A stretch of 64,000 bases of DNA, from contig JAQOOI010000019.1 of NCBI GenBank assembly GCA_028554645.1, forward strand, positions 1,240,001 through 1,304,000. Reading direction: 5' to 3'. Positions 23,501 to 38,137 of the stretch are shown in pieces. Under the pieces are notes generated by a model that did no database searches, was not told the origin of the DNA, and was given only the letters and a program-made list of their open reading frames with translations. The DNA comes from Omphalotus guepiniiformis. Taxonomy: Eukaryota; Basidiomycota; Agaricomycetes; Agaricales; Omphalotaceae. Numbering within the stretch: the stretch's first letter is position 1; each line of letters starts with the position of its first letter. The position numbers and the translations under genes are program-made.

Positions 23501-25780
23501 CTCTGATCATTCTAAAGCATGCATTTTTATGACGAAAGATAACAAAGTGAAGGTCTCACCAGATGCTTCCTTTGATGAAACACAGTTCCCATGTTGTAAA
23601 TGTGAACCTAAAAATGTAACTACTCACGAGAACATCCCTGATCTAACGACATTCAGATGGTACTCCTGAATTTGATGATGACTTCAATCCTACCAGACCC
23701 TCATCAGGTCGTCCCAATTGTCCAAGAAGTAGAAGTTCTTCTCCAATCAAGGATTTAGAGTATGTGGATTCTACAGATCCCAACTCACATGGTAGTTCTT
23801 CTAAACCTAAAAAGGAAGTAAAGACAGAGCTTCCACCAAGTAGCAAGGTACCTCTATTATGAGAACGTTGTACATGTCGAGGAGTTACATCACCTCCTCT
23901 ACCGACTGTACCCCCTCGTTCTCCATTACGGTCTCCTCGAGAGACTCTACCTGCTCCTCCTATAGAACCTACTGCTCCACCAGTGCATCTCCATTCTCGA
24001 CATGCTCTAAGGCCTCCTCTACATGAAGGTAACATATATGGTGAACATAGTAACCCTATTCAGTCTGAACAAATGACTGAGCAACAATATCATCAGTGTA
24101 CACATGCCATTGACACCTTATGGTGTCAAGAAAATTGGAAATTTGGATTCATGTACTACACCGGATCCTTCTCAATCTGAACCATTGGATGAGACTGCTC
24201 GAGAAGCCTCTCTATCCAGATGTGCTCAGGAAGGGGGAGTTGCTTATGTTGCACACCTTATGAACCAATTGGAAATCCCTGAAAGTGATGTAATTAAAGA
24301 ATGGGATTATAAAGATATATTACGTCTTCCGAGATCAGAACAAAAACCATGGTTCCAGGGTTGTCACAAAGAGATAGAAGCTTTAAAGAAGCGGAACGTT
24401 TATGAAGAAGTCGATTTACTGGCAGATTGGAAAGCAATCAAATGTAGATGGGTTTTCAATAAGAAGAAAGACGGCTGATATCACGCACGTCTTGGTGCTA
24501 AGGGATTTTCTCAAGTGGACGGAATAGATTACAATGAACTGTTTTCCCCTGTCGTTTGATACAAAACAGTTTGTCTCCTTTTGGCAATAGCAGCTCTCAA
24601 AGATTGGGACATCGAGGCGCTAGATGTTAAAACTGCCTTCTTGTATGGCAAGCTAGACAAGAAGATATATATGGAACAGCCTGAGGGCTTCTGTAAGGGA
24701 AACAAAGTTTGGAGACTGAAACGCGCTTTATATGGACTTAAACAGGCATCATTGGCCTGGTGGCGCGAATGTGAACAGTCAATGAAGGCATTAGGCTTTA
24801 AACATAGCCAAGTTGATGCTGGATTATTCATCTTTTGACAAGGCAAGCAATTGGTGATTGCTCTAGTCTATGTAGATGATGCAATGTTCATGGGTCCAGA
24901 TAAGAAGCTGATGAGAGAACTCAAACAGCACTTTATAGATACCTGGGAATGCCGAGACCTAGGCAAACCCGAAGAATTCTTGTCAATGTGCATAACCTGT
25001 GACCAAAGGAATCAAAGATTATATCGAGATCAAACTGCGTACCTTGAAAAGATCGTGAGATGCTTCAGCATGTGGGATGCAAAGGTCACTTCTACTCCTC
25101 TTCCCACAAACTTCAAATAAGGGAAGAATACACAGGATGTTGATCTGAAACTTCGCACTCAATATCAACATGTTATCAGATCTTTGCTCTACTTAATGCT
25201 TGGCACGAGACCAGACATTGCTTATGCTGTCACAAAGCTATTGCAGTACTCTATAAATTATTCACAACAACATTACCAATGGGTAATGTATGTTTTATGG
25301 TACCTGCGAGGCGCAAATAATTATAGGATGGTTTATGATGGAAAAGAAGGATTGGGTCTAATGGCTTTCTCTGATAGTGACTATGCACAATGTCCTGATA
25401 CGCGACACTCCCAAACAGGAAATATCATATTCCTTGCTGACGTGCCTATCACATGGAAGTCACAATTACAGAAGGTCATTACCGCTTCCAGCACCGAAGC
25501 AGAATACATCTCGCTTAGTGAAGCTGGGAAGCAGATCATTTGGCTAAAGTCTATTCTACTCGAGTTAGGCTTTGATGTCACGTATGTTGCCTTATTAGGT
25601 GACAATCAAGGGTCACTGTTTATCGCATCAAAACCTGTTGCCGACAAACATATGAAACACATTGATGTTTGATATCATCAAATCTGAGAATGGGTCAAAT
25701 CAAAACAAATTGAACTTCTTTACATACCTACTGATCAGCAGACCGCAGATCTACTTACAAAGAACTTAGGAGCTACTTTA
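20591..25780 (+). pseudogene. copia pol: protease, integrase, RT, RNase H
   Basis: Protease 'WILDSAAAVHII' (20770-20805). Integrase zinc finger 'HNRFAH...MCDGCNTRKK' (21196-21318). Integrase core has 'HADLMEFP' and 'VDQGTKF', but the usual NGxAERxNR reads 'NGRAKHVNR', so the third catalytic residue is lysine instead of glutamate. A solo LTR at 21949-23474 splits 'KLTAKA' from 'ELMTMIGYSD'. RT runs from about 24330 ('QGCHKEIEALKKRNV', 'DVKTAFLYGKLDKKIYM') and has 'YVDDAMFMG' intact (24870-24896). RNase H shows 'ASSTEAEYISLSEAGK' near 25490. Stops at 20949, 21252, 21642, 21726, 24476, 24556, 24836 and 25670. Confidence 0.88.
21949..23474 (-). repeat. solo LTR C (1526 bp) inside copia integrase
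   Basis: Inverted copy of LTRs A and B, flanked by a perfect 4-bp duplication GCGG (21945-21948 and 23475-23478). Removing LTR plus one duplication restores the copia frame. It carries the longest GACA/GACACA microsatellite of the three copies (22147-22242). Confidence 0.88.
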
Positions 25781-25879
25781 TTTTGGCAACATGTCTCCTA
25801 CTTTATTTTGGCAACACGTCTCCTACTTTATTTTGGCAACACGTCTCCTACTTTATTTTGGCAACACGTCTCCTACTTA
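25773..25879 (+). repeat. four tandem copies of a 25-bp unit
   Basis: Unit CTACTTTATTTTGGCAACAC plus GTCTC, repeated four times with one T/C difference in the first copy, and a partial fifth. It expands the copia 3' coding end ('LFWQH...' reading). Confidence 0.9.
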
Positions 25880-25950
25880 CAGATTGAGTTCTTCAAGTAA
25901 TTATGCTTTATGCTTATGCTTTCAAACATTATGATATACATGTTCTCAGC

Positions 25951-25959
25951 AAGGGGGAG
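25951..25959 (+). promoter_or_regulatory. copia polypurine tract
   Basis: AAGGGGGAG immediately before the 3' LTR start TGTTGG; primes plus-strand DNA synthesis in this class. Confidence 0.8.
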
Positions 25960-26295
25960 TGTTGGAATATCTGCTTAGTGTAGATGTACATGTACAGTAG
26001 TCCAACATTGCATTACTATGCAAGTATGATTACACTAAATTCCCAAGAGGAGTTATAGCTATTGGACAGGATTATAGATACTAGTACTTCTTAATCATAC
26101 GCTACTTTACATACATGAGCATGGACCATGTATTTTACATATAAAAGTAGTAGGCCGTCTAGCAAGGACGACAAGTCAATACTTAACCAAGTTCGACCTC
26201 TACTGCCTATCTGTCTCAAGTAACAATCAGCTACTGGCAAGTAGATGATTACCATCTTGTAGCTGACCTGTCCCCGGTAGTCCACTGTGACTGTT
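25960..26295 (+). repeat. copia 3' LTR (336 bp, end lost)
   Basis: TGTTGGAATATC...GTGACTGTT. The expected terminal TCAACA is missing because a dispersed repeat joins here. Confidence 0.85.
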
Positions 26296-26958
26296 AATGT
26301 GCAAGAATTAGACTGAGAGGGGGTTTGTGGAGGTGTGGCTGGCGTTGGCAAAGGTTCCACACAGTTAAACTCGACAATCGAACTCAATACTGAGCTAGCA
26401 AGTGTCTGCAGTCTGCTCTGAACAGGGTATAAGTGACAGGGCAACTCAAAAACACAAGTTCAAGACAGAGGGCAACTAGTTTCTCAGGGGTTCAGGGGAT
26501 GGTTCAGGGCAATAATCAGAGTGAACAACTCGATTCAATAGTCCAAACAGTGACAGTATCAATCAGAACAGTAGCAGCAACAGTTTTAGCAGGCAGAACA
26601 GCACAGACAGAACAGCAGGGACAGCAACAGTTTCAGTATCTCTCTCAAAGTTTGCCACAAGGGACTTTACAGAAGTTTGCACAACTGGTATATTTCTCTA
26701 TAACTGAACTCCTAAGAGCCAGGCAATTTTCATCTAGAAGAAGTTCCGCTTTGGTAGTGAGCCTAGGCAGTCCTAACTTAAGGAAAAATATCTACAAGTA
26801 GGTAGTTCTTATATACAGGTCAGAAAATAAATATAGTAAATCTCAAAAATGTAAGGGAATCTGAGCAGAGTAAATAGAAAAGATAACAGAAAGACTAATT
26901 GAGCAGGGATTGGTGTCTTTTTAGGTATTTTTGTAGGTATTTTTCAGTTAGATACTGT
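26296..26958 (+). repeat. dispersed repeat copy split by the tyrosine-recombinase element
   Basis: Inverted relative to 1063-1775. Its distal ~50 bp continue at 32260-32312 on the other side of the element ('TTGGGTATAAAAA', 'GCTTTGTCC'), showing that the tyrosine-recombinase retrotransposon inserted into it. Confidence 0.65.
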
Positions 26959-27033
26959 CCAATCGCTTCGCAACTCTGAGATTCGCACGCATATAGCCAG
27001 GAAGCATCACCACACAGTGGTGACCATGCATTT
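26959..27033 (-). repeat. split repeat B2
   Basis: 75 bp, identical by eye to 27454-27528. Contains the palindrome-like CACCACACAGTGGTG. Confidence 0.85.
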
Positions 27034-27048
27034 AGTGGGAGGGACGGG

Positions 27049-27453
27049 TAGATGCGAATAAGCTATGTACTACGACGAATGAGTTCGAAACTTGTACTAA
27101 GAAAAAACCCGACATACCTAGCAGACGACGAATGAGTTTGAAAGGAGTGAAGAGCTCCTATCCACTCGCCGTCTGCTTTTCTCTTCGACAAACAAACATA
27201 CACATAAAATTTTTTTAAATGTAAAGTAATGCACGGCCGAAAATGCCATGACTTCGCGGGCCACGGGCCATGATCAGAGACACACGGTGTCAAAGAACGC
27301 GGGCACACGGTGCCAGTATTGCAGGCATACGATGCCAATGAAACACGGCCCTCGGTTGGGCGAAAAACCTGAGCACGGCCAGGTGTGTGTGAAAAGAGGT
27401 GCTGTAGCGCTTTACTTGCGATTGAACTAGTGTAAAGAAATCTTTAAACCCGA
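27049..27453 (-). repeat. split repeat A2 (405 bp)
   Basis: Near-identical to 31854-32259, with differences such as CGGTTGGGC versus CGGTCGGGC. Directly abuts B1. Confidence 0.88.
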
Positions 27454-27528
27454 CCAATCGCTTCGCAACTCTGAGATTCGCACGCATATAGCCAGGAAGC
27501 ATCACCACACAGTGGTGACCATGCATTT
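27454..27528 (-). repeat. split repeat B1
   Basis: 75 bp copy of 26959-27033, sitting between the recombinase gene and A2. Confidence 0.85.
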
Positions 27529-27621
27529 TTAGAGGGCGCAGCGTGTATGTGCGCCGTAATGGCTAATAAAAAGAGAGGAGATGGAGTTGAGAGTGAAGAT
27601 GGGAACAGAGACGCAGCGCCG

Positions 27622-28629
27622 TCAGACAGTGGAGGGAGCATCCCGGAAGAGGAAAGCCTGCAGTAGAACAGGGTTCTTCCGGATGTAAATCTTGAAAGCC
27701 TCCGACGACCAGCGACCAGCAGCTTGGATCAGATGAGGCAGAACACCCAGCTCAGCAAGGGCAGTCGCACCGCCAGCGCGCATGGACTGCCCTGCAATAC
27801 AGGTATCAGGAAAGAAATGGCGTAACCGTGACATGAACCAAGAACGAGTGGGGACTCTGCCATTGGATCGCAACCACAAGTGAGGATGGAGGCGAAACAG
27901 CTTATCCCTAGACCGTAGATAAGCCACGAAGGGAGCATAAGGGTCGATAGATGCAGGAAAGGCAGGGTGCCGCCGGATTACAGGACGATTTCCTTCGAAG
28001 ACAGGGTCTGCCTTATGTGCCGGCAACTCGAAAGAGTATGCGTGGTCGTACCACTGAACAGAGGACCGAGGCGTGAGCTTTCGCAGGTTACGAATTTTCT
28101 TGTTGTCCGGCATACTCAACTCAGCCAACCGCAATAGGCCGTGAAAGCCAGTGAGCAACATTGCACGAAAGAGAAGGTCATCATGGCTAGATGAACCACG
28201 GAGAGCAGACGTCACCGATGCCAGGTCGTCAACACTCAGAGGCAGTTTACGTTTCACGGGATTACTATAAAGACGCTTACAGCCCTTGAGGGTACGCGAG
28301 ACGAGGAGGCTCTTGCGCAAGGCACGGATGTGGGGGAAATGTGGCTCGAGCTGGTTGCAGATTCCAGACAGATACGAGTCGACGGTGCGGGGTTCGACGT
28401 GACGAGACATGTAGACGGTGTAGAAACTGAGCGTGTCCACCGTTGGATCAATAGGGAGATGGTGTAAACTGCAGAAAGTGATGTAGGAATTGAGTGCAGA
28501 GGTATACGTCGCACGAGTGGATGTGTCAATGGCGAAACCCAAAGCCACGGAGCGTTCATGTATTAAACGCTCTAGAGTCCACGGCTCCCGCCGAGGTTGC
28601 CGTGAACCCGAAGACACCGCAAAACTCAT
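27622..28629 (-). CDS. tyrosine recombinase (integrase) of the Ngaro-type element
   Basis: 335 residues, open, ATG at 28629 overlapping the RT stop as ATGA. It would join the circular retrotransposon DNA to the chromosome in the nucleus. Residues ~15-125 look like the helical core-binding domain ('RATYTSALNSYITFC'). The catalytic domain shows R167 ('FHGLLRLAELS'), a box-II S-x-R ('QSMRAGGATALAELG', R284), 'GRW' at 305-307 and the nucleophile Y315 ('AFKIYIRKNP'). Histidine, usual before box-II Arg, is replaced by Ser. The length fits this family. Confidence 0.88.
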   Translation of the reverse strand: MSFAVSSGSRQPRREPWTLERLIHERSVALGFAIDTSTRATYTSALNSYITFCSLHHLPIDPTVDTLSFYTVYMSRHVEPRTVDSYLSGICNQLEPHFPHIRALRKSLLVSRTLKGCKRLYSNPVKRKLPLSVDDLASVTSALRGSSSHDDLLFRAMLLTGFHGLLRLAELSMPDNKKIRNLRKLTPRSSVQWYDHAYSFELPAHKADPVFEGNRPVIRRHPAFPASIDPYAPFVAYLRSRDKLFRLHPHLWLRSNGRVPTRSWFMSRLRHFFPDTCIAGQSMRAGGATALAELGVLPHLIQAAGRWSSEAFKIYIRKNPVLLQAFLFRDAPSTV

Positions 28630-31600
28630 TTTTTGGCTGCCCCCAGCGCCTCATGAGGGGGTTGAAAAGATGATAGAGAGATGCGCGGTTCCAACTCCCG
28701 CACACGCGCGAAGTCAAAACGCGAGAGAGCATCAGCGACCTGATTGTCCACACCTGGAACGTGCAAGACACGGAGGTCGACATTGTCCTGCATGAGAATG
28801 TCGACCGCGTACTTCAAGAGGTGGTTGTACTCTGGGAGAGCACGCAGCGAGTTGAAAATCTGTACTGAGTTCATGCTATCTGAAAAGATAACGACTCGGC
28901 GAATCGGAGTGCGAGAATAGCACTCGTCACGAACGACATGGTGTAGAGCCGAAACCACGCACAGAGCCTCGAAGAAAAAGATCCTGCTAGAAGAAGTGGA
29001 TGGTGGGCAAGCACTCCAAAAACCCAGCTGGCGCTCGGGAATCCAGAACCCTAGACCCTCCAGGCATGCATCACAGAAGATGACTAAATCTGCTTCTTTC
29101 TCGGACCATAGCAACGAGTCGAAAAGGAAGATGCCGTTAGACGCCTCAAGCCTGTCCGCAAGCCACCCGAGGTCGTCTCTAACACCCTTGCTAACCGCCA
29201 CCTCAGCGTGGGGCTTCGACTTTCCCTTCATCTTCTCGTATACATGGCAAAGGCCTGGTTTCAACAAGGGGTGAACATTGAAAGACCAGTTAGACCATCC
29301 GGCAATCTGCTGAAAACAGTGGAGGGTCCGTCGCCTGGCTTTGACGAATTCACGTAGAGCTACGACTAACTCGCCCTTAGACTCTGAGGACATAGTAGCC
29401 GACATCTCGTTGGGGTCGACGTCGAACCCTATAATGGGAAGAACTAACCCGTGCACCTGCTTCGGCATGTCATGAGGAATCCCGAGACGATCCCACAACA
29501 GCAAGAGTTTCGTTTGGTTTGACGGGTACGACTCATTATACGGCGCGTAGTGCATGAACTCTTGGTCTGGTTGGAAACCATAGTCATCGTCAACGTAGGT
29601 GAACAGGTCTGGTATGTTCTCTACATTCCTCGCAATCCACGTTACTAATGCGTTGAACGATATGAAGATACGTCCCCCGCTCCTGTTCCCAAAGGCGTTA
29701 TTTCGGTCGACGTTTCGCGCCAACGTGAACGTTTCTCCTCTGTCCACTTCGTCGACAGTGGGTAGGTTCGTCGTTATAACCTGCTTGATCTGCCACAAAG
29801 GGTGCATAGGGCACAGCCGATATGCTCCTGATACGTCCGACTTATACATGCGCAGCTTCACGCTCGCGCCATGTCGTTGCCGGTAGGCTAGCAAAGCCGC
29901 ACCTAAGAGCTGAATGGTGTCGAGAGGTGCACCCATTATGCTCTCACGAGCGATCATCGAGTTTGGCGAGAAACGACCAGCGCTCTGATTCACCACAAGC
30001 CTGAACTTGTCAGACCTCGGCTTAGGGACAGCATGAATTGGCGAACTGTACATGCCAGGCAGTAAGCCAGGCCCGAACGATGGTGAGAAATATCCCTTTG
30101 ACATTTCCACGTCTCTCTGACTATGTAGAAAATTACGCTCGTCGCTGGACCTGGGAGGCATCCAAGAATTATCCCAGGTCTCGGGGTAGCCATCTTGATG
30201 ACCCGTGATGGCCCATGGCCAGAAACCCTTTCGGAATCCCTCGCACACGGATCTGACGAACGGCTGATTGGGATGCGATGCACACAACTGCTTTAGCACT
30301 TCGTGCTTGACCGGCGAAACAATCTTGAATAGCTCAGGGTGTTCTTTAATGGTTTTAACCGCCGCTTCGTTCATAAATTCGTCCCTTCCCGGACCAGGAA
30401 GGGGAGGCTCCTTCTCTGTCCAACTGACAGTTTTACTTCCACACCTATCCTCATCACCTTGGAACCAGCCCATACCCCTCCGGTATTTTGGCAACTCCAA
30501 TGTGCCCACCCCCACTCCGATCTCTTCCGCATTCTGATGACACATGTCCTGGTTGTAAACACCTGGCGCAAACGTGCGGGTATTTACATTTTCCTCCATA
30601 GTTGCATAGATTGGCATTCCATTTACGGCAAGCGTCAACCTCGCTAACCTTTCGCATTCTCTTCGCCGCGTAGCCGTCACCTCCTTGGACTCCAATCCCG
30701 TAGGTGTCGATGTGCGCGGTCTTGAGATGGAGGGTACATTGGACGTCAGCGAGGGACAAGTCTCGTCGACTCCCAATGTACTTTCGGGCGGCTTTGTCAT
30801 ACGAAATGACTCTCCCATGGACCGAAGGGCTGATGGCTGAGAAAAGAGAGGTGATGTGTTCGTGCCATGTCTCGAGTTCCTCCCCCCGATGTGGGAATGC
30901 AAACAGCACTGCTCGCCGGTACATGCCGAAAGCGTTGATCCAGTCGCCCTGGGTCTTGACACTTTTACTGATGTCGGGTTCGCCAGTGACTCTGAGCTCG
31001 AGTTTGTCCCCGAGTTTTTCGACGCGATCTTTACTGATGATGGCTGAGTGTAGACTGCTGATGAGAACGTCGAAATTGGCGGCCCTTCCCTCGAGGAGGG
31101 ATCCCCACTCTGAATCCGGGTAGCTTGGGCAGGTGAGTGCACTAGTGACCTGCTGTTTGCTGAACTTAAGGTTTTTGGTGTAGTTCTGCACAAGCTCGAG
31201 GGTGCGCAACTTATGGGGGGACAAGATAGCCGTTCGGATAAGGTCTTCTGCAACCCAAGGGAAGAGTTTCTCATCGACACGTTGTCGCTTAGCCTCAGGA
31301 GAAGAGTCTTCCGGAGTGGACGAACGTGAGCGCCTCGATTTGCGTGCTTCACGCCCTCGCCGCTGAGACGACTCGCCAGCGATGGCTTCAGCATCCTCGT
31401 CATCTCCGCTGGGCTGTTGCTCATTTTCATTCGCTTGTCCTCCCGACGGGTTGACTCCCATTCGTCCTCCATGCTCGCCCGCTTCTCGCCTTGCGTCGGT
31501 GATGCTATCGATGAGCTCCATGTAGGTCTCGATGACTTGTTCGCTCTCGTCCTGGCCCATGTTTTGTTCCAGGACTTTAGCGGTGATGTCTCGCATTGCG

Positions 31601-31802
31601 GCAGATTTTCTGACCCTCCCCTGTCTGAAATTCTCGACAACAGACTTGATTGCAGAGACGACCCCCGCGTCGAATTCAAGACCGGTGGGTTGCTGTCCAC
31701 CCGATCCAGTAGGCTGATGTTCACTTGCCTGGGTGCTCTGTTGTCCGGATGCTTGGGTGTTTCCACCTCCATTCGTTGAATCAGGTTGGGTTTGGGAGAC
31801 AT
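28626..31802 (-). CDS. reverse transcriptase-RNase H of the Ngaro-type element
   Basis: 1058 residues from ATG 31802. The first ~450 codons lie over gag in another frame and carry repeated S/T-L-x-x-R-[LIV]-[SD] motifs. RT proper runs from about residue 590 ('FRLVVNQSAGRFSPNS', 'MYKSDVSGAYRLCPMHP') to the catalytic box YVDDD at residue 736. RNase H follows ('VIFCDACLEGLGFWI', 'FFFEALCVVSALHHV', 'VVIFSDSMNSVQIFNSL', 'HVPGVDNQVADALSR'), giving the D-E-D-D set. It ends TGA overlapping the recombinase ATG, suggesting termination-reinitiation. A gag-RT fusion by frameshift is an alternative start. Confidence 0.85.
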   Translation of the reverse strand: MSPKPNLIQRMEVETPKHPDNRAPRQVNISLLDRVDSNPPVLNSTRGSSLQSSLLSRISDRGGSENLPQCETSPLKSWNKTWARTRANKSSRPTWSSSIASPTQGEKRASMEDEWESTRREDKRMKMSNSPAEMTRMLKPSLASRLSGEGVKHANRGAHVRPLRKTLLLRLSDNVSMRNSSLGLQKTLSERLSCPPISCAPSSLCRTTPKTLSSANSRSLVHSPAQATRIQSGDPSSREGPPISTFSSAVYTQPSSVKIASKNSGTNSSSESLANPTSVKVSRPRATGSTLSACTGEQCCLHSHIGGRNSRHGTNTSPLFSQPSALRSMGESFRMTKPPESTLGVDETCPSLTSNVPSISRPRTSTPTGLESKEVTATRRRECERLARLTLAVNGMPIYATMEENVNTRTFAPGVYNQDMCHQNAEEIGVGVGTLELPKYRRGMGWFQGDEDRCGSKTVSWTEKEPPLPGPGRDEFMNEAAVKTIKEHPELFKIVSPVKHEVLKQLCASHPNQPFVRSVCEGFRKGFWPWAITGHQDGYPETWDNSWMPPRSSDERNFLHSQRDVEMSKGYFSPSFGPGLLPGMYSSPIHAVPKPRSDKFRLVVNQSAGRFSPNSMIARESIMGAPLDTIQLLGAALLAYRQRHGASVKLRMYKSDVSGAYRLCPMHPLWQIKQVITTNLPTVDEVDRGETFTLARNVDRNNAFGNRSGGRIFISFNALVTWIARNVENIPDLFTYVDDDYGFQPDQEFMHYAPYNESYPSNQTKLLLLWDRLGIPHDMPKQVHGLVLPIIGFDVDPNEMSATMSSESKGELVVALREFVKARRRTLHCFQQIAGWSNWSFNVHPLLKPGLCHVYEKMKGKSKPHAEVAVSKGVRDDLGWLADRLEASNGIFLFDSLLWSEKEADLVIFCDACLEGLGFWIPERQLGFWSACPPSTSSSRIFFFEALCVVSALHHVVRDECYSRTPIRRVVIFSDSMNSVQIFNSLRALPEYNHLLKYAVDILMQDNVDLRVLHVPGVDNQVADALSRFDFARVRELEPRISLSSFQPPHEALGAAKK

Positions 31803-31809
31803 CAGTCAT
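30454..31809 (-). CDS. gag-like protein of the Ngaro-type element
   Basis: 451 residues from ATG 31809 (-3 is A, good context). The frame stays open upstream to 31920 inside repeat A1, but that part lacks sense. The N-terminus is Gln/Ser/Gly-rich; residues ~150-200 are basic and Ser-rich ('RRGREARKSRRSRSS'). The central helical region ('LFPWVAEDLIRTAI', 'WINAFGMYRRAVLFAFP', 'SLADVQCTLHLK') resembles gag-like proteins of mushroom transposons. Cysteine clusters near the end ('CRKWNANLCNYGGKCKY', 'HVCARCLQPGHVSSEC') look like a C3H finger followed by a knuckle. It should bind and package the RNA. Confidence 0.82.
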   Translation of the reverse strand: MTDVSQTQPDSTNGGGNTQASGQQSTQASEHQPTGSGGQQPTGLEFDAGVVSAIKSVVENFRQGRVRKSAAMRDITAKVLEQNMGQDESEQVIETYMELIDSITDARREAGEHGGRMGVNPSGGQANENEQQPSGDDEDAEAIAGESSQRRGREARKSRRSRSSTPEDSSPEAKRQRVDEKLFPWVAEDLIRTAILSPHKLRTLELVQNYTKNLKFSKQQVTSALTCPSYPDSEWGSLLEGRAANFDVLISSLHSAIISKDRVEKLGDKLELRVTGEPDISKSVKTQGDWINAFGMYRRAVLFAFPHRGEELETWHEHITSLFSAISPSVHGRVISYDKAARKYIGSRRDLSLADVQCTLHLKTAHIDTYGIGVQGGDGYAAKRMRKVSEVDACRKWNANLCNYGGKCKYPHVCARCLQPGHVSSECGRDRSGGGHIGVAKIPEGYGLVPR

Positions 31810-31853
31810 GCTCGACTTTGAAATACGAAGTGTTGATGGAATGTAATTCGATA

Positions 31854-32259
31854 TAGATGCGAATAAGCTATGTACTACGACGAATGAGTTCGAAACTTGT
31901 ACTAAGAAAAAACCCGACATACCTAGCAGACGACGAATGAGTTTGAAAGGAGTGAAGAGCTCCTATCCACTCGCCGTCTGCTTTTCTCTTCGACAAACAA
32001 ACATACACATAAAATTTTTTTAAATGTAAAGTAATGCACGGCCGAAAATGCCATGACTTCGCGGGCCACGGGCCATGATCAGAGACACACGGTGTCAAAG
32101 AACGCGGGCACACGGTGCCAGTATTGCAGGCATACGATGCCAATGAAACACGGCCCTCGGTCGGGCGAAAAACCTGAGCACGGCCAGGTGTGTGTGAAAA
32201 GAGGTGCTGTAGCGCTTTACTTGCGATTGAACTAGTGTAAAGAAATCTTTAAACCCGAC
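31854..32259 (-). repeat. split repeat A1 (406 bp)
   Basis: 5' terminal repeat in element sense, likely promoter-bearing; matches A2. Confidence 0.88.
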
Positions 32260-32312
32260 ATGTATAGGTATCTTGGGTATAAAAATCGTTATAACAATTG
32301 CTTTGTCCATAT

Positions 32313-33662
32313 AGTGGCTTGGCAATCAAGTCCAGCGTATCTAACCAGGGTGTACAGCACGCAATATCAGTCCAGAATGGTGCCATATGACAACATCTTT
32401 TGTGATTTTGAAATTTGCAACTCTTTTGATTTTCCTAACTGGGGGTTGCTGGTGAGGTTCCTAGCATACCCAGTGGTTATTCCTTTGTCTCAGAGGTCAT
32501 CTAGACCCTACTCCATTGTTACTATCATCCACAAGCTGTACAGTAGCACATGTGTCTATCTGGTCAAATCTTGCATCTGATTTGTCTCCAGGAGGTACTT
32601 CTCCTTTTAGCTGGTTCTAACAACAAGCTATGGGCAGTATTATGTCCCAATAATCGTTTATTCTTCCCTATTTGGGTGTCTGGGTCCAGGGTATCACTCA
32701 GTTAGATGTTACATTTCAGAGGGATACTCCAGAATCAACATCTATCTCCATGGTAGGATAGCTTGAGTATCTAACTCCATTCTTCAGAAATGACTTAGAG
32801 GATTTTTCCTCTTCAGCCAACAGACAAAGGTGGTTCACAAGTTGTAACACCATCCTAAGCATAGTACCAAATGTACAACATATTTCTCTGGTCAGAACAA
32901 TACAAGATTGTCTGCATTCTCAGCATTAAGTCTTTACAGCCAACCTGAGTTAGCAAGACCAGCTGGAGTTAGATAGTTCAGTGGACTTAGATGTTTCTCA
33001 GATTGAATTGTAACTTCCATCATTCCCTTGGATTACAATCAAACAACACTCATGAGAGTCTCTAGTCTTTAGAGGGTGGGTCTGACCAACTCAACTTAGC
33101 ATGGAACATTGGTACTCCAATACAAAATGAGAGGCAAAACTAGTATCCCTCTCCATAATCCCATTGGTCACAGTTGCTAAGTACCATATCATGCACTGTA
33201 GCTAACTCTACACTCAGGCTTGAGTGACTAAGTGTGTTCTCATGTTTCAACTAGCAGTCTGGGTGAACTCTAGTCCTCATTGTTCAGTTTCCAATGTTTG
33301 AACAACCAAAATCTTTCTCAATCTGCATGATTTCAAGCCTAGACCGCTTTTAGTCGCAACACCGTTTCAACAGGCTTTTCTTGCAGGCTCATCAACAACA
33401 GCACAGTTGGGACTTACTTGGCATGGCTCTAACTTCTGCTGAAATGCTCCACATCATCATTACACCAAGGGCACAATTCATACTTACAAGTTATGTTATG
33501 CGCCTACATGGGATGTGTATGAAGTGTTTGACAGGTTGAGAATCTATCACAGATTGAATATGTGATGAAAAAGATCTTTGGCCTCCCTTTCTTTAATGTG
33601 TCTTGATGCTGATGATCACCTACAGGCCATGTTTGTGATGATGAACGATGGCAGAAAGATTC
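32313..33662. other. gene-free stretch between two retrotransposons
   Basis: 1.35 kb of unique-looking, AT-rich sequence with only short frames. No domain, LTR pair or RNA gene was recognised. It may be an eroded transposon. Confidence 0.4.
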
Positions 33663-33667
33663 TCAAG

Positions 33668-33933
33668 TGTTATGAACCGAAGACTTAAGGGCGTGAGAAC
33701 GAGGCTTTGGAGGAATAACTTGAGTTGATTCAACGACTGAACTATACGGAAATACAAAGCTTTTATAATACAAGTAGATAGAAAAGGAGTCAAATAATAA
33801 GTATCAAATGAAAAACTAAACTAAAATGTCCTTGGTGTATCTAAGATGTCCGAGACTACATGTAACAACTAAACACAGTCCGAAATGTCCATATGGTCCG
33901 ATTTGAGTCCGAATCAGGAGGGAAATCATTACA
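33668..33933 (-). repeat. chromovirus 2 3' LTR (266 bp)
   Basis: Paired with 39405-39704; lacks a 34 bp partially duplicated segment ('GGTCCGAGACTACATG' region). The inside flank on the minus strand is the purine tract AAAAAGGAGGACAA. Confidence 0.9.
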
Positions 33934-33956
33934 TTGTCCTCCTTTTTAAGCGAGGT

Positions 33957-36900
33957 TCATAGGTTTAATTTCTGTGCGGGTTTGGATATTCGCCCGGAGC
34001 AGGTGGTGGTGTGAGTGGGTGGTTCATAATTTGCACGAAGGTTCTGATGTACAGGTGTAGGTGAAGGAGTGCGGGATGTCGGATGATGTATCGTTGGAGA
34101 GTATTCGTTTGATGATTCAGGAATGAGTGTAGTAGGTATTGTTGGTAATGAATGATTTTTGTCGATCATTATGTTTGGTGGCTTTATGGAACGTGGATGT
34201 CGTCGATGGAAATGATGTATTATTTCGTTTTGATGAGTCGGTATGTCAGAGAGTGGAATCCATGAATTTTCTGAGGAAGGCTGATCTTTCCACGAGACAA
34301 GGTAGTCATAGCGTTTTCCGATCTTTCTGGAGTCCAAAATAGAATGTATGATTGTAGAATTGTCAGCATCAAGGGTAAGAGGAATTGGGGTGGTATGTGG
34401 ATGAAATTCAGATGGATCATTGTAAGGTTCGAGTAGTGATGCGTGGAAAACAGGATGTAGCCGTTGTAGATATGCTGGTAAATCTAGAACGTATGAATCG
34501 GAGTTTTGGACACGTATCTTAACGGGGTAAGGTCCTAATCTTCGATGATCAAGTTTTGCCGAGAGACGAGTTGTTTTGATATTTTTTCGTAGTAACCATA
34601 CGAGTTGGCCAGGAATATATTGGAGAGCCGATAGGTGGTGTTTGTTGTAGAAATAAGTCTGTTGTTCTTGAGCGTGAACGAGTTCCGCTTTTAATTCGTC
34701 ATGGATGAGGAGAAGTCGTTTGGCTAATTCATCGGCTGCTGGTACTGTTGTACGTTCTGATATTTTTGGTTCGAAGGTGGGATTGAATCCGATATTTGCA
34801 AAGAAAGGGGTTTGCCGAGTGGAAGTATTTTCGAGACTGTTAAATGTGAATTCGGCAAGAGGAAGATAATCTACCCAGTCGTCCTGTTGATATGAAGTAT
34901 AGGCACAAAGATAAGTTTCGAGAGTTTGATTTGTGCGTTCTGTAAGACCGTCGGTTTGTGGATGATATGCAGTAGAGGTTTTGACCTTGATGTCAAGTAG
35001 ATTTGTCAATTCTTTCCAGAAATTTGACACGAAAATAGATCCGCGGTCGGAAATGATGTGGGAAGGGAGTCCATGTAGACGGAATATTCTATCTAAAAAC
35101 AGCCAAGCGAGATCTTTCGCTGTGATGGTTTCATTACACGGAATGAAGTGTGCTGCACGGGTGAGTCTGTCGCAAATGACTAGAATTGAATCATACTGAT
35201 GTGATAATGGTAGCTTGACTATAAAATCCATGGAGATTGATTGCCAAGGACGGGATGGAATATCGAGGGGTTGTAAGAGTCCATAGGGTTTATGTCGAGC
35301 GTCTTTGATACGTGGGCAGATATCACAAGCGTCAACATAGTTGTGAATATATCGAGACATGCCTGGCCAAGAGTAGTCGGACGATACAGCTTGTTCTGTT
35401 CGACGCCTGCCAGGATGACCTCCAATGACTTTGTCGTGACGGGAGTAAACAATCTGAGATCTGAGAGATTCCGGAACGTAGATTCTTCCGTGGTGAGTGA
35501 CAATATCTTGATCTAATTTGAAATCTTTGCTTCCGTTGGCTATGGCGTCACGCCATTGAGTGTCGTGTTGGTATGCGTTTTTAAATTGTTGAATGAGTTC
35601 TGAATTGTCCATTGATAAGGTAGTGAGTGCTGGAATTGGAATAGGAATAGGTGTAGAGCTTGAAATGGGAATAGATGGAGAGTTTGGGGTGAAAATGGAT
35701 GATAATTTTTTAATATGCGAGGATGTTAAGATAGTATGGTATTGAATTTCTAGATGTTCATCTCCCTTTTTAGGGATAAAGTCCGAACGACGAGAAGCGG
35801 TGTCAGCAACGTTTTGAGAACCCGGAGCCCATTGAAGCGAGAAGTCATATTCAGAAAGGAACATGGCCCACCGTGCTTGGCGACGATTGAGTAATTGTGG
35901 TTTCATGAAATATGTAAGATTTTTGTGGTCGGCAATAACAGAAATGGGATATTTGGAGCCTATAAGCCAGTGGCGATTCTCGCGGAAAGTTTCTATGATT
36001 GCGAGTAACTCTTTATCATGGACGTCGTAGTTAATTTCAGCAGGAGTGAGTTTCCGAGAGAAAAAAGCGACCGGATGAAGAAGTTTGTTGGAATCCGGTT
36101 GTTGAATGACACCAGCAATAGCGAAATCTGATGCGTCGGTAGATATAGTGATGGGAAGTGATGGATTGAAATGTTGTAATATGGGAGCTTTGAGAAAATG
36201 ATGTTTGAGGCTGTTGAAGGCGGTTTTGCATGAGGAGGAGAATTCGAAAGGGGTATTTTTATGAGTTAGGTTAGTGAGAGGAGTGACGAGTTTGGAATAG
36301 TTATGAATGAAACGGCGGTAAAAATTTGAAAAACCTAGAAAGCCTTGAAGATCTTTGAGTTTTGTCGGTTCTGGCCAATTGGAGATAGTGTCGAGTTTGG
36401 TAGGATTCATTTTGAGCCCGTCAGGATTAATGATGTATCCAAGGAATTCTACTTCTTCTTTGTCAAAGTTACACTTGGCGGCATTGGCAGATAAATTAGC
36501 GGAACGAAGACGATCAAGTACGAGTTTGACATGACCATCATGCTCTTCTTGAGTCTTGGAAAATATTAGAATATCGTCCAGGTAGACGACACAGACAACA
36601 TCAAGTAGATCTCTGAGAACATCCTGGATGAAAGCCTGCCAAGCGGCAGGGGCGTTCGTTAGACCATAAGGGACGATGAGATGTTCGAATAAACCTAAAT
36701 GGGTCCGAAATGCGGTTTTCCATTCGTCCCCTTCCCGAATACGTAGATGACTATATGCACTTTTGAGATCAATCAACGTGAAGATTTTGCAGCCCTGGAC
36801 ACGGTCAAGAAGATCATCAACAAGAGGGAGTGGAAAACGATTTTTACGGGTAATGTTATTGAGTCCCCGAAAATCAACGCAGAGTCTAATCTCTCCAGTT

Positions 36901-37025
36901 TTCTTCCGCGTAAAAAGTACAGGTGCTCCGGCGGATGAAGTTGACTGACAAATGTGACCGCGTTTGAGATTTGAATGTACATATTCCCCTACGGCTTCTC
37001 GTTCAGTGTCTGTGAGTCGATACAT
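33957..37025 (-). CDS. chromovirus 2 pol: RT-RNase H-integrase-chromodomain
   Basis: 1022 codons from the first ATG; the frame stays open upstream of it through 'EKLPQHRPFDIEI', so the natural product is a polyprotein and the ATG is arbitrary. RT: 'TLIDLKSAYSHLRI', 'VVYLDDILIFS' (36573-36584 encode YLDD). RNase H: 'ISTDASDFAIAGVI', 'DKELLAIIETF'. Integrase: H-H-C-C finger ('GGHPG...CDIC') and core residues in 'SMDFIVKLP', 'SDRGSIFVSNFW', 'TDGLTERTNQTL'. Chromodomain near the end: 'IIHSILDSRKIGKRYDYLVSWK', read as 'ILDSRKIG', 'YLVSWKDQ', 'NSWIPLSDIP'. All catalytic residues appear present. It copies the element RNA and inserts the DNA. Confidence 0.92.
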   Translation of the reverse strand: MYRLTDTEREAVGEYVHSNLKRGHICQSTSSAGAPVLFTRKKTGEIRLCVDFRGLNNITRKNRFPLPLVDDLLDRVQGCKIFTLIDLKSAYSHLRIREGDEWKTAFRTHLGLFEHLIVPYGLTNAPAAWQAFIQDVLRDLLDVVCVVYLDDILIFSKTQEEHDGHVKLVLDRLRSANLSANAAKCNFDKEEVEFLGYIINPDGLKMNPTKLDTISNWPEPTKLKDLQGFLGFSNFYRRFIHNYSKLVTPLTNLTHKNTPFEFSSSCKTAFNSLKHHFLKAPILQHFNPSLPITISTDASDFAIAGVIQQPDSNKLLHPVAFFSRKLTPAEINYDVHDKELLAIIETFRENRHWLIGSKYPISVIADHKNLTYFMKPQLLNRRQARWAMFLSEYDFSLQWAPGSQNVADTASRRSDFIPKKGDEHLEIQYHTILTSSHIKKLSSIFTPNSPSIPISSSTPIPIPIPALTTLSMDNSELIQQFKNAYQHDTQWRDAIANGSKDFKLDQDIVTHHGRIYVPESLRSQIVYSRHDKVIGGHPGRRRTEQAVSSDYSWPGMSRYIHNYVDACDICPRIKDARHKPYGLLQPLDIPSRPWQSISMDFIVKLPLSHQYDSILVICDRLTRAAHFIPCNETITAKDLAWLFLDRIFRLHGLPSHIISDRGSIFVSNFWKELTNLLDIKVKTSTAYHPQTDGLTERTNQTLETYLCAYTSYQQDDWVDYLPLAEFTFNSLENTSTRQTPFFANIGFNPTFEPKISERTTVPAADELAKRLLLIHDELKAELVHAQEQQTYFYNKHHLSALQYIPGQLVWLLRKNIKTTRLSAKLDHRRLGPYPVKIRVQNSDSYVLDLPAYLQRLHPVFHASLLEPYNDPSEFHPHTTPIPLTLDADNSTIIHSILDSRKIGKRYDYLVSWKDQPSSENSWIPLSDIPTHQNEIIHHFHRRHPRSIKPPNIMIDKNHSLPTIPTTLIPESSNEYSPTIHHPTSRTPSPTPVHQNLRANYEPPTHTTTCSGRISKPAQKLNL

Positions 37026-38137
37026 ACGGCTAAATGGGGGTGATTTCCCTTCTTCAATCTCGATTTCTATATCAAAGGGGCGATGTTGCGGTAATTTTTC
37101 AAATTCCGCGGGATTAAAAACTGTGTCGGCATAGTGGAGGTATTTTTCTGGAACAAAGGTTCTGTAGTCGGGTTTGGGAGGTGGTTCAGGAATTGGTGGT
37201 TCAGGAATTGGATCGTCGGGAGGTAGTTCAGAAGGTATTGGCGTTTTGAAAGAATTGATGTAATGAAGAGAGGATTTGTCGAAAAACCTAAGGATAGAAA
37301 TATTTTCGGAAGTATTTTTTGAGATTTTTGCAAACTTTTTTGGGCTAATAATTTTGATGTTAATCGGAGTTGGTGTTTGATCGGAGTTTATTGAAGTGGA
37401 AGTGGATGAATATGGTGGAACCGTTGAACGTGGGTAGGGGCGTGACTGGGGAATTGGAAATGGATCAGGGATGGAACGGCCATAGCCATTGTAATGCGTA
37501 AAAGCGGATAGAAAGGAGATATGTGAAGATGGTGGAGGTGTAGGCGGTATATGGAAATGATTGGATTTTGGAAAAACAGAAGTAAACCAGGATTGATTGG
37601 ATGAAAGTCCGAGTTGCGAGATTGATATCGGGGTTGATTGATTCGGACTAAGGCCCGTTTTAGCCAGTCGAGACCTAAAATGATAGGATAGCCGACGGAA
37701 ACAACGGAAAGAGATATGAGTTCGGAGTGTGTTGAAATAAGGAGTTGCGTGATAACATCTTGGGTGATCAGTCCAGATGCAATAGGGCGATCATCAACAG
37801 CTGTGACAGGTACGGGTAAGGATTTCAGTTTACGGGGGAGGTTATGTCGAGTTGCGAATCTTTCGGAGATGCATGATGTGGAGGCGCCGCTGTCAAGCAG
37901 CGCGTGAGTCAAGATGGTTTGATTATTGGGTAAACGAAGTGTAACAGCGATGATAAACTGCTGGTCGGTATTGAGAGAATGAATGAATGCTGGAGGAAAT
38001 TTCGGAGGTGCGAGGGTGTATATGCCATTAGATTTGCAAAGGTATGTTGGTTCTGGTGTGTTAGATTTGTTTATTGGACGTGTCCCTTCGTCTACCGGAA
38101 GCCCTGGGACTTGAGAACAACCGGTTAGACTTTTCCC
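37026..38137 (-). CDS. chromovirus 2 pol N-terminal part: aspartic protease and linker
   Basis: Entered by -1 frameshift from gag ('SLTGCSQVPGLPVDEGTR'). Protease active site 'HALLDSGASTSC' near 37890, and 'PIILGLDWLK' near 37675. There the frame must shift by one: adding one base to the AAAA run at 37665-37672 reads 'LKTGLSPNQS' and stays open for over 200 codons of Pro/Ser-rich linker into RT. So this piece is either a single-indel lesion, a sequencing error in a homopolymer, or a second recoding site. Protease cleaves the polyprotein. Confidence 0.75.
38080..38137 (-). promoter_or_regulatory. putative -1 ribosomal frameshift signal between gag and pol
   Basis: In element sense the gag codons are TTG GGA AAA GTC TAA. 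GGGAAAA (38131-38137) is a canonical X-XXY-YYZ heptamer. Downstream TCTAACCGG pairs with CCGGTAGA (one bulged A), and loop GTCCC pairs with a later GGGAC, allowing a pseudoknot. The pol frame is -1 relative to gag. Confidence 0.7.

What the first reader, a model, noticed from the sequence alone, without database searches (positions are those of the whole stretch)
30454..31809. Gag and RT frames overprint each other for 1.35 kb, with start codons 7 nt apart
Seen: gag starts ATG 31809 and the 1058-codon RT frame starts ATG 31802 (ATGACTGATGTC). Both stay open for ~450 codons on the same DNA. Gag has cysteine fingers; the RT frame over the same DNA has its own repeated motif. So long an open overlap is unlikely by chance and implies dual coding. 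Inference: leaky scanning, frameshift or separate mRNAs set the gag to RT ratio. The first ATG has a good -3 A and the second a poor -3 C, which argues against simple leaky scanning.
Basis: partly seen in the sequence, partly recalled or inferred. Interest (0 to 1): 0.78.

Follow-up and report, generated by a model that had tools for sequence, protein, structure and literature searches.

The report
Mushroom jumping gene overprints its gag
In a fungal mobile element, one 1.35-kilobase stretch of DNA is read in two frames to make two proteins, the coat-like Gag and a floppy tail of the reverse transcriptase, from start signals only 7 bases apart, and related elements in other fungi appear to do the same.

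Summary
Gag (31809-30454, 451 aa) and the RT/RNase H frame (ATG 31802, 1058 aa) overlap for 449 codons, with ATGs 7 nt apart, in a recent-looking Ngaro-type retrotransposon. The overlap is very probably real dual coding. Ten of ten paralogues with a readable gag start keep ATG-N4-ATG. Three divergent copies keep both frames open; synonymous shuffles of gag did so in 1 of 20,000. Of 20 long N-extended RT homologues, 15 imply a Gag in exactly the -1 frame.

The frames are unequally constrained. Gag dominates: its 4-fold sites diverge nearly as fast as single-coding ones. The RT-frame extension evolves fast, is S/T/P-rich and predicted disordered (weak model), yet keeps an open frame and repeated [ST]LLxR[LMI] motifs: 20 in 15 homologues against 0.2 in shuffles.

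Most likely RT is a free protein, not a Gag-Pol fusion, made by coupled initiation at two adjacent AUGs, the geometry of turnip yellow mosaic virus p69/p206 and of a yeast reporter. YR follows through an ATGA stop-start overlap. The mechanism is inferred, not shown.

The parts
31854..32259 (-). A1 repeat, 5' end of the element
   Evidence: 405 of 406 nt identical to A2
30454..31809 (-). gag ORF, 451 aa plus stop; CCCH finger then CCHC knuckle near the C-terminus
   Evidence: relatives
31800..31809 (-). ATG-N4-ATG double start: gag ATG 31809, RT ATG 31802
   Evidence: kept in 10 of 10 copies with a readable gag start
28626..31802 (-). RT/RNase H ORF, 1058 aa plus stop
   Evidence: Pfam weak, 4 of 10 alignment members match RVT_thumb, best E 9.3e-4
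30454..31802 (-). dual-coded stretch: RT-frame N-terminal extension over gag, with repeated [ST]L-x-x-R-[LMI] motifs
27622..28629 (-). tyrosine recombinase ORF, 335 aa plus stop
28626..28629 (-). ATGA: YR start overlapping RT stop, after a run of six A
   Evidence: same junction found in 5 of 6 copies examined (E0-E4; not found in the disrupted E5)
27454..27528 (-). B1 repeat
   Evidence: 75 of 75 nt identical to B2
27049..27454 (-). A2 repeat
26959..27033 (-). B2 repeat, 3' end of the element

Best explanation
This is a Ngaro-type retrotransposon whose RT ORF runs upstream through the whole of gag in the +1 frame. Ribosomes reaching the 5' end of the mRNA dwell over two adjacent AUGs (ATG-N4-ATG) and initiate at either one: AUG1 gives Gag, AUG2 gives a free RT/RNase H protein with a ~450-aa disordered tail. 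The fixed short spacing, not a frameshift, would set the Gag:RT ratio. The tail must stay free of stops over gag and carries repeated short [ST]LLxR[LMI] motifs, which may tether RT to Gag or to a host factor in place of a Gag-Pol fusion. YR is probably reached by termination-reinitiation at ATGA. Shown by sequence: open dual frames, constant spacing, recurrent motifs. Inferred: translation itself, coupled initiation, free RT, reinitiation. Speculative: the tether.
For: Spacing kept in 10 of 10 readable copies although gag residues 2-4 vary. Both frames open in E0-E2 against shuffles and a pairwise null (0 of 1000 draws as low, in each of six pairs). 15 of 20 N-extended homologues imply Gag in the -1 frame, z 21-258, third frame -1.9 to 4.7. 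Motif [ST]LLxR[LMI]: 20 in 15 homologues' extensions against 0.2 in shuffles, 0 in their 8,714 RT/RH residues. A start-proximal L[LISEHG]x[RQ][LMI] in 11 of 15 homologues and 8 of 10 paralogues. Precedents: TYMV, 7 nt (PMC5382211 passage); yeast AUG competition within ~17 nt and a dual-frame reporter with the second AUG at +8 (PMC9743702 abstract and passages).
Against: Weak amino-acid constraint in the RT frame: gag 4-fold divergence equals or only modestly undercuts controls. No transcript, ribosome or protein data. Transcription start unknown; an in-frame upstream ATG lies at 31920. AUG2 has a poor -3 base in most copies. 82 of 121 placed homologues have under 100 extra residues and 3 of the 15 confirmed ones lack the strict motif. 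Kozak 1995, as cited in PMC9743702, found exclusive first-AUG use with a close second AUG. Motif patterns were chosen after seeing E0, the start-proximal one after seeing the homologues.
Confidence: 0.68

Rival explanations
1. Plain context-dependent leaky scanning: some ribosomes miss AUG1 and use AUG2; the close spacing has no role of its own.
For: AUG1 never has G at +4 and lacks A at -3 in 3 of 10 copies.
Against: AUG2 is usually the poorer context (C at -3 in 8 of 10), and exact spacing is not needed for leaky scanning, yet it is constant; shared ancestry may explain part of that.
Confidence: 0.17
2. Two 5' ends: some transcripts start between or just before the AUGs, so that RT is read from its own mRNA.
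For: No transcription start is known; leaders and upstream ATG numbers differ between copies (0-4 in 200 nt).
Against: Does not by itself call for a constant 7-nt spacing; no direct test was possible.
Confidence: 0.08
3. RT is made as a Gag-RT fusion by a +1 frameshift near the gag stop or by splicing; the upstream open frame is not used.
For: Four of 20 long homologues are annotated as same-frame Gag plus RT proteins.
Against: No shared shift site was seen by eye near the gag stop in E0-E3. In the four fused models the Gag match ends at Gag residues 342-374, before the zinc fingers, which looks like bridging by predicted introns, though their DNA was not seen. It leaves the open frame, the motifs and the constant AUG2 unexplained.
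Confidence: 0.05
4. The overlap is open by composition or chance and is not translated in the RT frame.
For: Gag wobble positions diverge almost freely.
Against: Stop and motif counts against several nulls and the -1-frame Gag implied by 15 of 20 independent homologues.
Confidence: 0.02

Closest known systems
Ngaro retrotransposons of fungi (PMC3783388, passages and one section seen)
   Same: Split direct repeats A1-ORFs-B1-A2-B2; gag, RT/RNase H and tyrosine recombinase ORFs in that order; relatives in Agaricomycetes.
   Different: PMC3266345 says Ngaro elements do not usually harbour ORF overlaps (passage). Here RT overlaps the whole of gag, with a double start.
Ngaro-like elements of Xenopus (PMC9210276, passages seen)
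   Same: Reported to have reading frames that all overlap.
   Different: Extent, frame and start spacing of the gag/RT overlap are not given in the passages; an extra hydrolase ORF is present there.
DIRS-1 and DIRS1-like elements (PMC3266345, PMC5633606, passages seen)
   Same: Tyrosine-recombinase retrotransposons with long ORF overlaps.
   Different: There RT/RNase H/MT overlaps YR, with inverted repeats; here RT overlaps gag, and RT/YR share only ATGA.
Turnip yellow mosaic virus p69/p206 (PMC5382211, passage seen)
   Same: Two overlapping ORFs from AUGs 7 nt apart; the replication protein uses the second AUG.
   Different: A plant RNA virus with unrelated proteins; coupling there was tested by experiment, here it is inferred.
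Seadornavirus segment 7 VP7/ORFX (PMC2832772, passage seen)
   Same: Second AUG separated from the first by 4 nt; +1 overlapping frame.
   Different: Unrelated genes; there the second AUG has the stronger context, here usually the weaker.

Membership tests
Ngaro retrotransposons | Split direct repeats in A1-ORFs-B1-A2-B2 order | tested here: met
   A1 32259-31854, B1 27528-27454, A2 27454-27049, B2 27033-26959 on the minus strand
Ngaro retrotransposons | RT/RNase H ORF | tested here: met
   YVDD and RNase H-like blocks read by eye; homologues include fungal proteins named reverse transcriptase or DNA/RNA polymerase; Pfam only weak
Ngaro retrotransposons | Tyrosine recombinase ORF, not a DDE integrase | tested here: met
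   335-aa ORF with R...GGAT...AGRWSS...Y-like blocks, recognised from recall in the sequence; Pfam only a weak integrase SAM-like match, E 0.18
Ngaro retrotransposons | HxxR motif in YR (reported for Cafeteria Ngaros, PMC8547959 passage) | tested here: inconclusive
   E0, E1 and E2 read QSMR where His would be expected; Arg kept; assigned by eye without alignment to a solved recombinase
Ngaro retrotransposons | No methyltransferase domain | tested here: inconclusive
   No such Pfam match at E up to 1 in the three proteins, but Pfam barely recognised the RT either
Ngaro retrotransposons | Placement in an RT/RH or YR tree with named Ngaro elements | not tested
   No tree was built
DIRS elements (sensu stricto) | Inverted terminal repeats | tested here: not met
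   The only inverted pair reported in 24000-36000 lies outside the element, 74% complementary
Coupled-initiation bicistronic mRNAs (works like) | Two out-of-frame AUGs a few nt apart, both ORFs open | tested here: met
Coupled-initiation bicistronic mRNAs (works like) | Second-ORF output depends on AUG proximity | not testable with these tools
   Needs a reporter assay
Gag-Pol frameshift retroelements | Shared shift site near the gag stop | tested here: not met
   Gag-stop regions of E0-E3 compared by eye share no evident site

The most novel reading that the evidence does not exclude
A lineage of mushroom Ngaro elements dispenses with the Gag-Pol fusion. RT is made as a free protein from the second of two coupled AUGs and is brought into particles by a disordered tail overprinted on gag, whose repeated [ST]LLxR[LMI] motifs bind Gag. 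Gag, the RT tail that binds it and the Gag:RT ratio would then all be set by the same 1.35 kb.
Probability: 0.3. Interest if true: 0.8.

Novelty: new variant of a known kind. Interest (0 to 1): 0.66.

Why it matters
Retroelements generally need more Gag than RT and must still package RT; many do it with a Gag-Pol fusion (established knowledge, recalled). A retrotransposon that overprints its entire gag with an RT tail and sets the ratio with two AUGs 7 nt apart would be another solution, testable directly in yeast. It would also be a ~450-codon overprinted, motif-bearing region that annotation tends to hide: many database versions of the RT lack it (82 of 121 have under 100 extra residues, cause not verified), and four gene models bridge the frames.

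Tried and rejected
Chance openness: disfavoured by three nulls and a pairwise null. In one search the single stop counted in E0 and in E2 is the TGA inside ATGA, upstream of the RT start codon (sequence); E3's is a true stop.

Frameshift at the gag end: no shared site seen by eye in E0-E3.

Strong amino-acid constraint on the RT frame: looked for, not found.

Gag fold: mean pLDDT 51.2 and no PDB match at E <= 0.001; nothing concluded. RT model: mean pLDDT 44.9 on a 10-row alignment, used only for the lack of predicted order in the tail. Solved structures by sequence: none for RT (single sequence, alignment); for Gag seven matches, all at E 0.19 or worse. DNA relatives of P0001 in viral contigs: none. 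Whether the 82 short homologues are shortened by gene callers could not be tested. P0002 (Gag) does not allow an ATG at +7 by its residues; +4 or +16 would be possible, so the 7-nt spacing need not hold in every relative.

Paper searches listed no account of this overlap in Ngaro elements, as far as titles and abstracts and the passages I opened show. Poulter and Butler 2015 and the Goodwin and Poulter papers were not looked up; Matsuda and Dreher 2006 is not held.

A first count of start-proximal motifs in homologues (10 of 15) was wrong because the script had loaded gapped alignment rows; redone (11 of 15).
Full report
What is there. The window lies in a 42.5-Mb genome in 80 contigs; the closest named RT homologues are from Agaricomycetes such as Armillaria, Lentinula and Mycena, so it is probably a mushroom. 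On the minus strand, 32259-26959, sits a Ngaro-type element: A1, gag, RT/RNase H, YR, B1, A2, B2. A1 and A2 match at 405 of 406 nt, B1 and B2 at 75 of 75, so the insertion looks recent. Gag is 451 aa with a CCCH finger and a CCHC knuckle, both below Pfam cut-offs. The RT ORF begins at 31802, 7 nt after the gag ATG, and runs 1058 codons; its first 449 lie over gag in the +1 frame. RT stop and YR start share ATGA, a junction found in 5 of 6 copies examined.

Is the open frame chance? Gag in this copy has 0 stops in the +1 frame and 26 in the other alternative frame. Shuffling codons among same-amino-acid positions gives a mean of 5.7 +1-frame stops and 1 stop-free sequence in 20,000. Redrawing from RT-core and YR codon usage gives 13.4 and none in 20,000. 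The difference between 5.7 and 13.4 suggests that gag's codon choice is itself shifted away from +1 stops.

Paralogues. The same genome holds diverged copies (the tool calls its counts lower bounds). I took E0 (this one) to E10, one locus per gag-bearing copy; E6 lacks the gag start. In 10 of 10 copies whose gag start could be read, a second ATG lies exactly 7 nt on, although gag residues 2-4 read TDV, PDE, SNE, PNE, SDA or SDV. E0, E1 and E2 have complete gag, RT and YR frames. E1's A repeats are identical over the 279 nt held and E2's are 98% identical over 300 nt, so these look like three separate fairly recent insertions; E1 and E2 share 60-61% of Gag with E0. E3 and E4 have one RT-frame stop each in the overlap and further stops elsewhere; E5 is disrupted early and was not countable from its start. 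E6-E10 were not counted for stops over the whole overlap.

How strong is selection on the RT frame? In this arrangement gag's wobble base is the middle base of the RT codon. If the RT tail were tightly constrained, gag wobble sites should be slow. They are not: across six pairs of E0-E3, gag 4-fold sites differ at 0.47-0.64, against 0.55-0.73 in RT core and YR; within a pair the gag value equals or modestly undercuts the controls. RT-frame identity in the overlap is 36-52%, gag 58-79%, RT core 70-84%. Gag is the dominant, probably older frame. Against a null that keeps both gag proteins and redraws codon pairs from single-coding regions where the pool allows (267-347 of 426-434 positions) and otherwise from gag itself, the RT-frame similarity score is higher in six of six pairs (z 2.1-5.3), mostly in the first quarter and over the gag end, with no excess in the middle. 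Stops are 0-1 where the null has 11-14 on average, and 0 of 1000 draws were as low in any pair. The pairs share sequences and are not independent.

Short motifs. The tail repeats [ST]L-x-x-R-[LMI]. For [ST]L[LIAVSE]xR[LMI], E0-E3 have 4, 2, 3 and 3 copies against 0.05-0.08 after synonymous shuffling; the stricter [ST]LLxR[LMI] gives 2, 1, 1 and 0 against 0.01 or less. The motif was chosen from E0, so the other-source test matters more: 15 N-extended homologues hold 20 copies of [ST]LLxR[LMI] in 12 of them, against 0.2 in residue shuffles, which do not allow for the gag constraint; their 8,714 RT/RH residues hold none. L[LISEHG]x[RQ][LMI] lies within the first 25 residues in 11 of 15 homologues, against 0.7 in shuffles and 554 of 5,505 other 25-residue windows, and in 8 of 10 paralogues; this pattern was fitted after seeing them. 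Examples: MSPKPNLIQRM here, MYHKPNLETRL in E10, MYLKPSLLSRM in P0029. A similar N-terminus directly after AUG2 is what a real start predicts.

Other sources. Searching with the RT core gave 665 proteins, of which the best 120 were listed. Of 122 proteins held, 121 could be placed on the RT core: 16 have 400 or more extra N-terminal residues, 3 have 300-399, 20 have 100-299 and 82 have under 100. I had no DNA for them, so I asked which residues the -1 frame of each tail could encode and aligned that to two Gags. I tested the 20 with tails of 295 or more. Fifteen match Gag in the -1 frame (z 21-258, either Gag); their third-frame scores lie between -1.9 and 4.7 and the RT-core controls between -1.2 and 3.4 (25 shuffles each). 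Four match Gag directly in the same frame (P0085, P0036, P0064, P0084), and P0097 matches neither. The 15 include annotated Lentinula raphanica and Mycena latifolia proteins (P0010, P0013). The other 101 were not tested. A distant, decayed Ngaro-like copy in the same genome (contig C20) keeps the same relative frames over its gag finger region.

Mechanism. A review of plant RNA viruses describes TYMV p69/p206, where the 7-nt proximity of two AUGs is needed for full output of the second ORF ('initiation coupling'; PMC5382211, passage). A yeast study found competition between AUGs up to about 17 nt apart, explained by back-and-forth scanning (PMC9743702, abstract), and used a dual-frame reporter with the second AUG at +8 in frame +1, the spacing seen here; it had to remove six +1-frame stops from GFP, the constraint gag shows here (passages). 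The same paper cites Kozak 1995 for exclusive first-AUG use with a close second AUG, so the effect is not universal. In the element AUG1 has A at -3 in 7 of 10 copies and never G at +4; AUG2 has C at -3 in 8 of 10 (read). This favours coupled initiation over plain leaky scanning, but only an assay can decide. The transcription start is unknown, and an in-frame upstream ATG at 31920 is a caveat.

The RT tail. AlphaFold on a 10-sequence alignment gives residues 1-450 no secondary structure, with 10-residue means of 23-34 pLDDT. With so thin an alignment this is weak evidence, but it agrees with composition: S+T+P is 31-35% in E0-E3 and 33% in the homologues. That the motifs bind Gag is speculation.

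Known or new. PMC3266345 (passages) says Ngaro elements do not usually have ORF overlaps. The parts of PMC3783388 I saw speak of YR frames only. PMC9210276 (passages) reports overlapping ORFs in Xenopus Ngaro-like elements. I found no account of a full gag/RT overlap with a double start in searches, but the founding Ngaro papers were not read. I rate it a new variant of a known kind.

Noticed in passing
window 27622-28629 (YR): The recombinase reads QSMR where HxxR would be expected, also in E1 and E2, while the distant C20 copy reads HSVR; read by eye.
   Followed up: no
window 26959-32259: Near-identical terminal repeats, yet the next best DNA match in the same genome is only 70% identical: an apparently recent insertion with no close sister found in that search.
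   Followed up: no
window 33957-37790, minus strand: A 1277-aa open frame with RT, RNase H and integrase-like sequence, by eye a Ty3/Gypsy-type polyprotein, lies just upstream of the Ngaro element.
   Followed up: no
window 25773-25872: Tandem copies of a 25-nt unit (CTACTTTATTTTGGCAACACGTCTC).
   Followed up: no
P0085, P0036, P0064, P0084: Annotated fungal proteins fuse the N-terminal part of Gag to RT and lack the Gag zinc fingers, probably intron-bridged gene models hiding the overlap.
   Followed up: partly
window 31920, minus strand: An upstream ATG in frame with gag inside the A1 repeat would add 37 residues to Gag if it is transcribed.
   Followed up: no
L058 (contig C20): A distant, decayed Ngaro-like copy with RT, YR and a gag finger region in the same relative frames.
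   Followed up: partly
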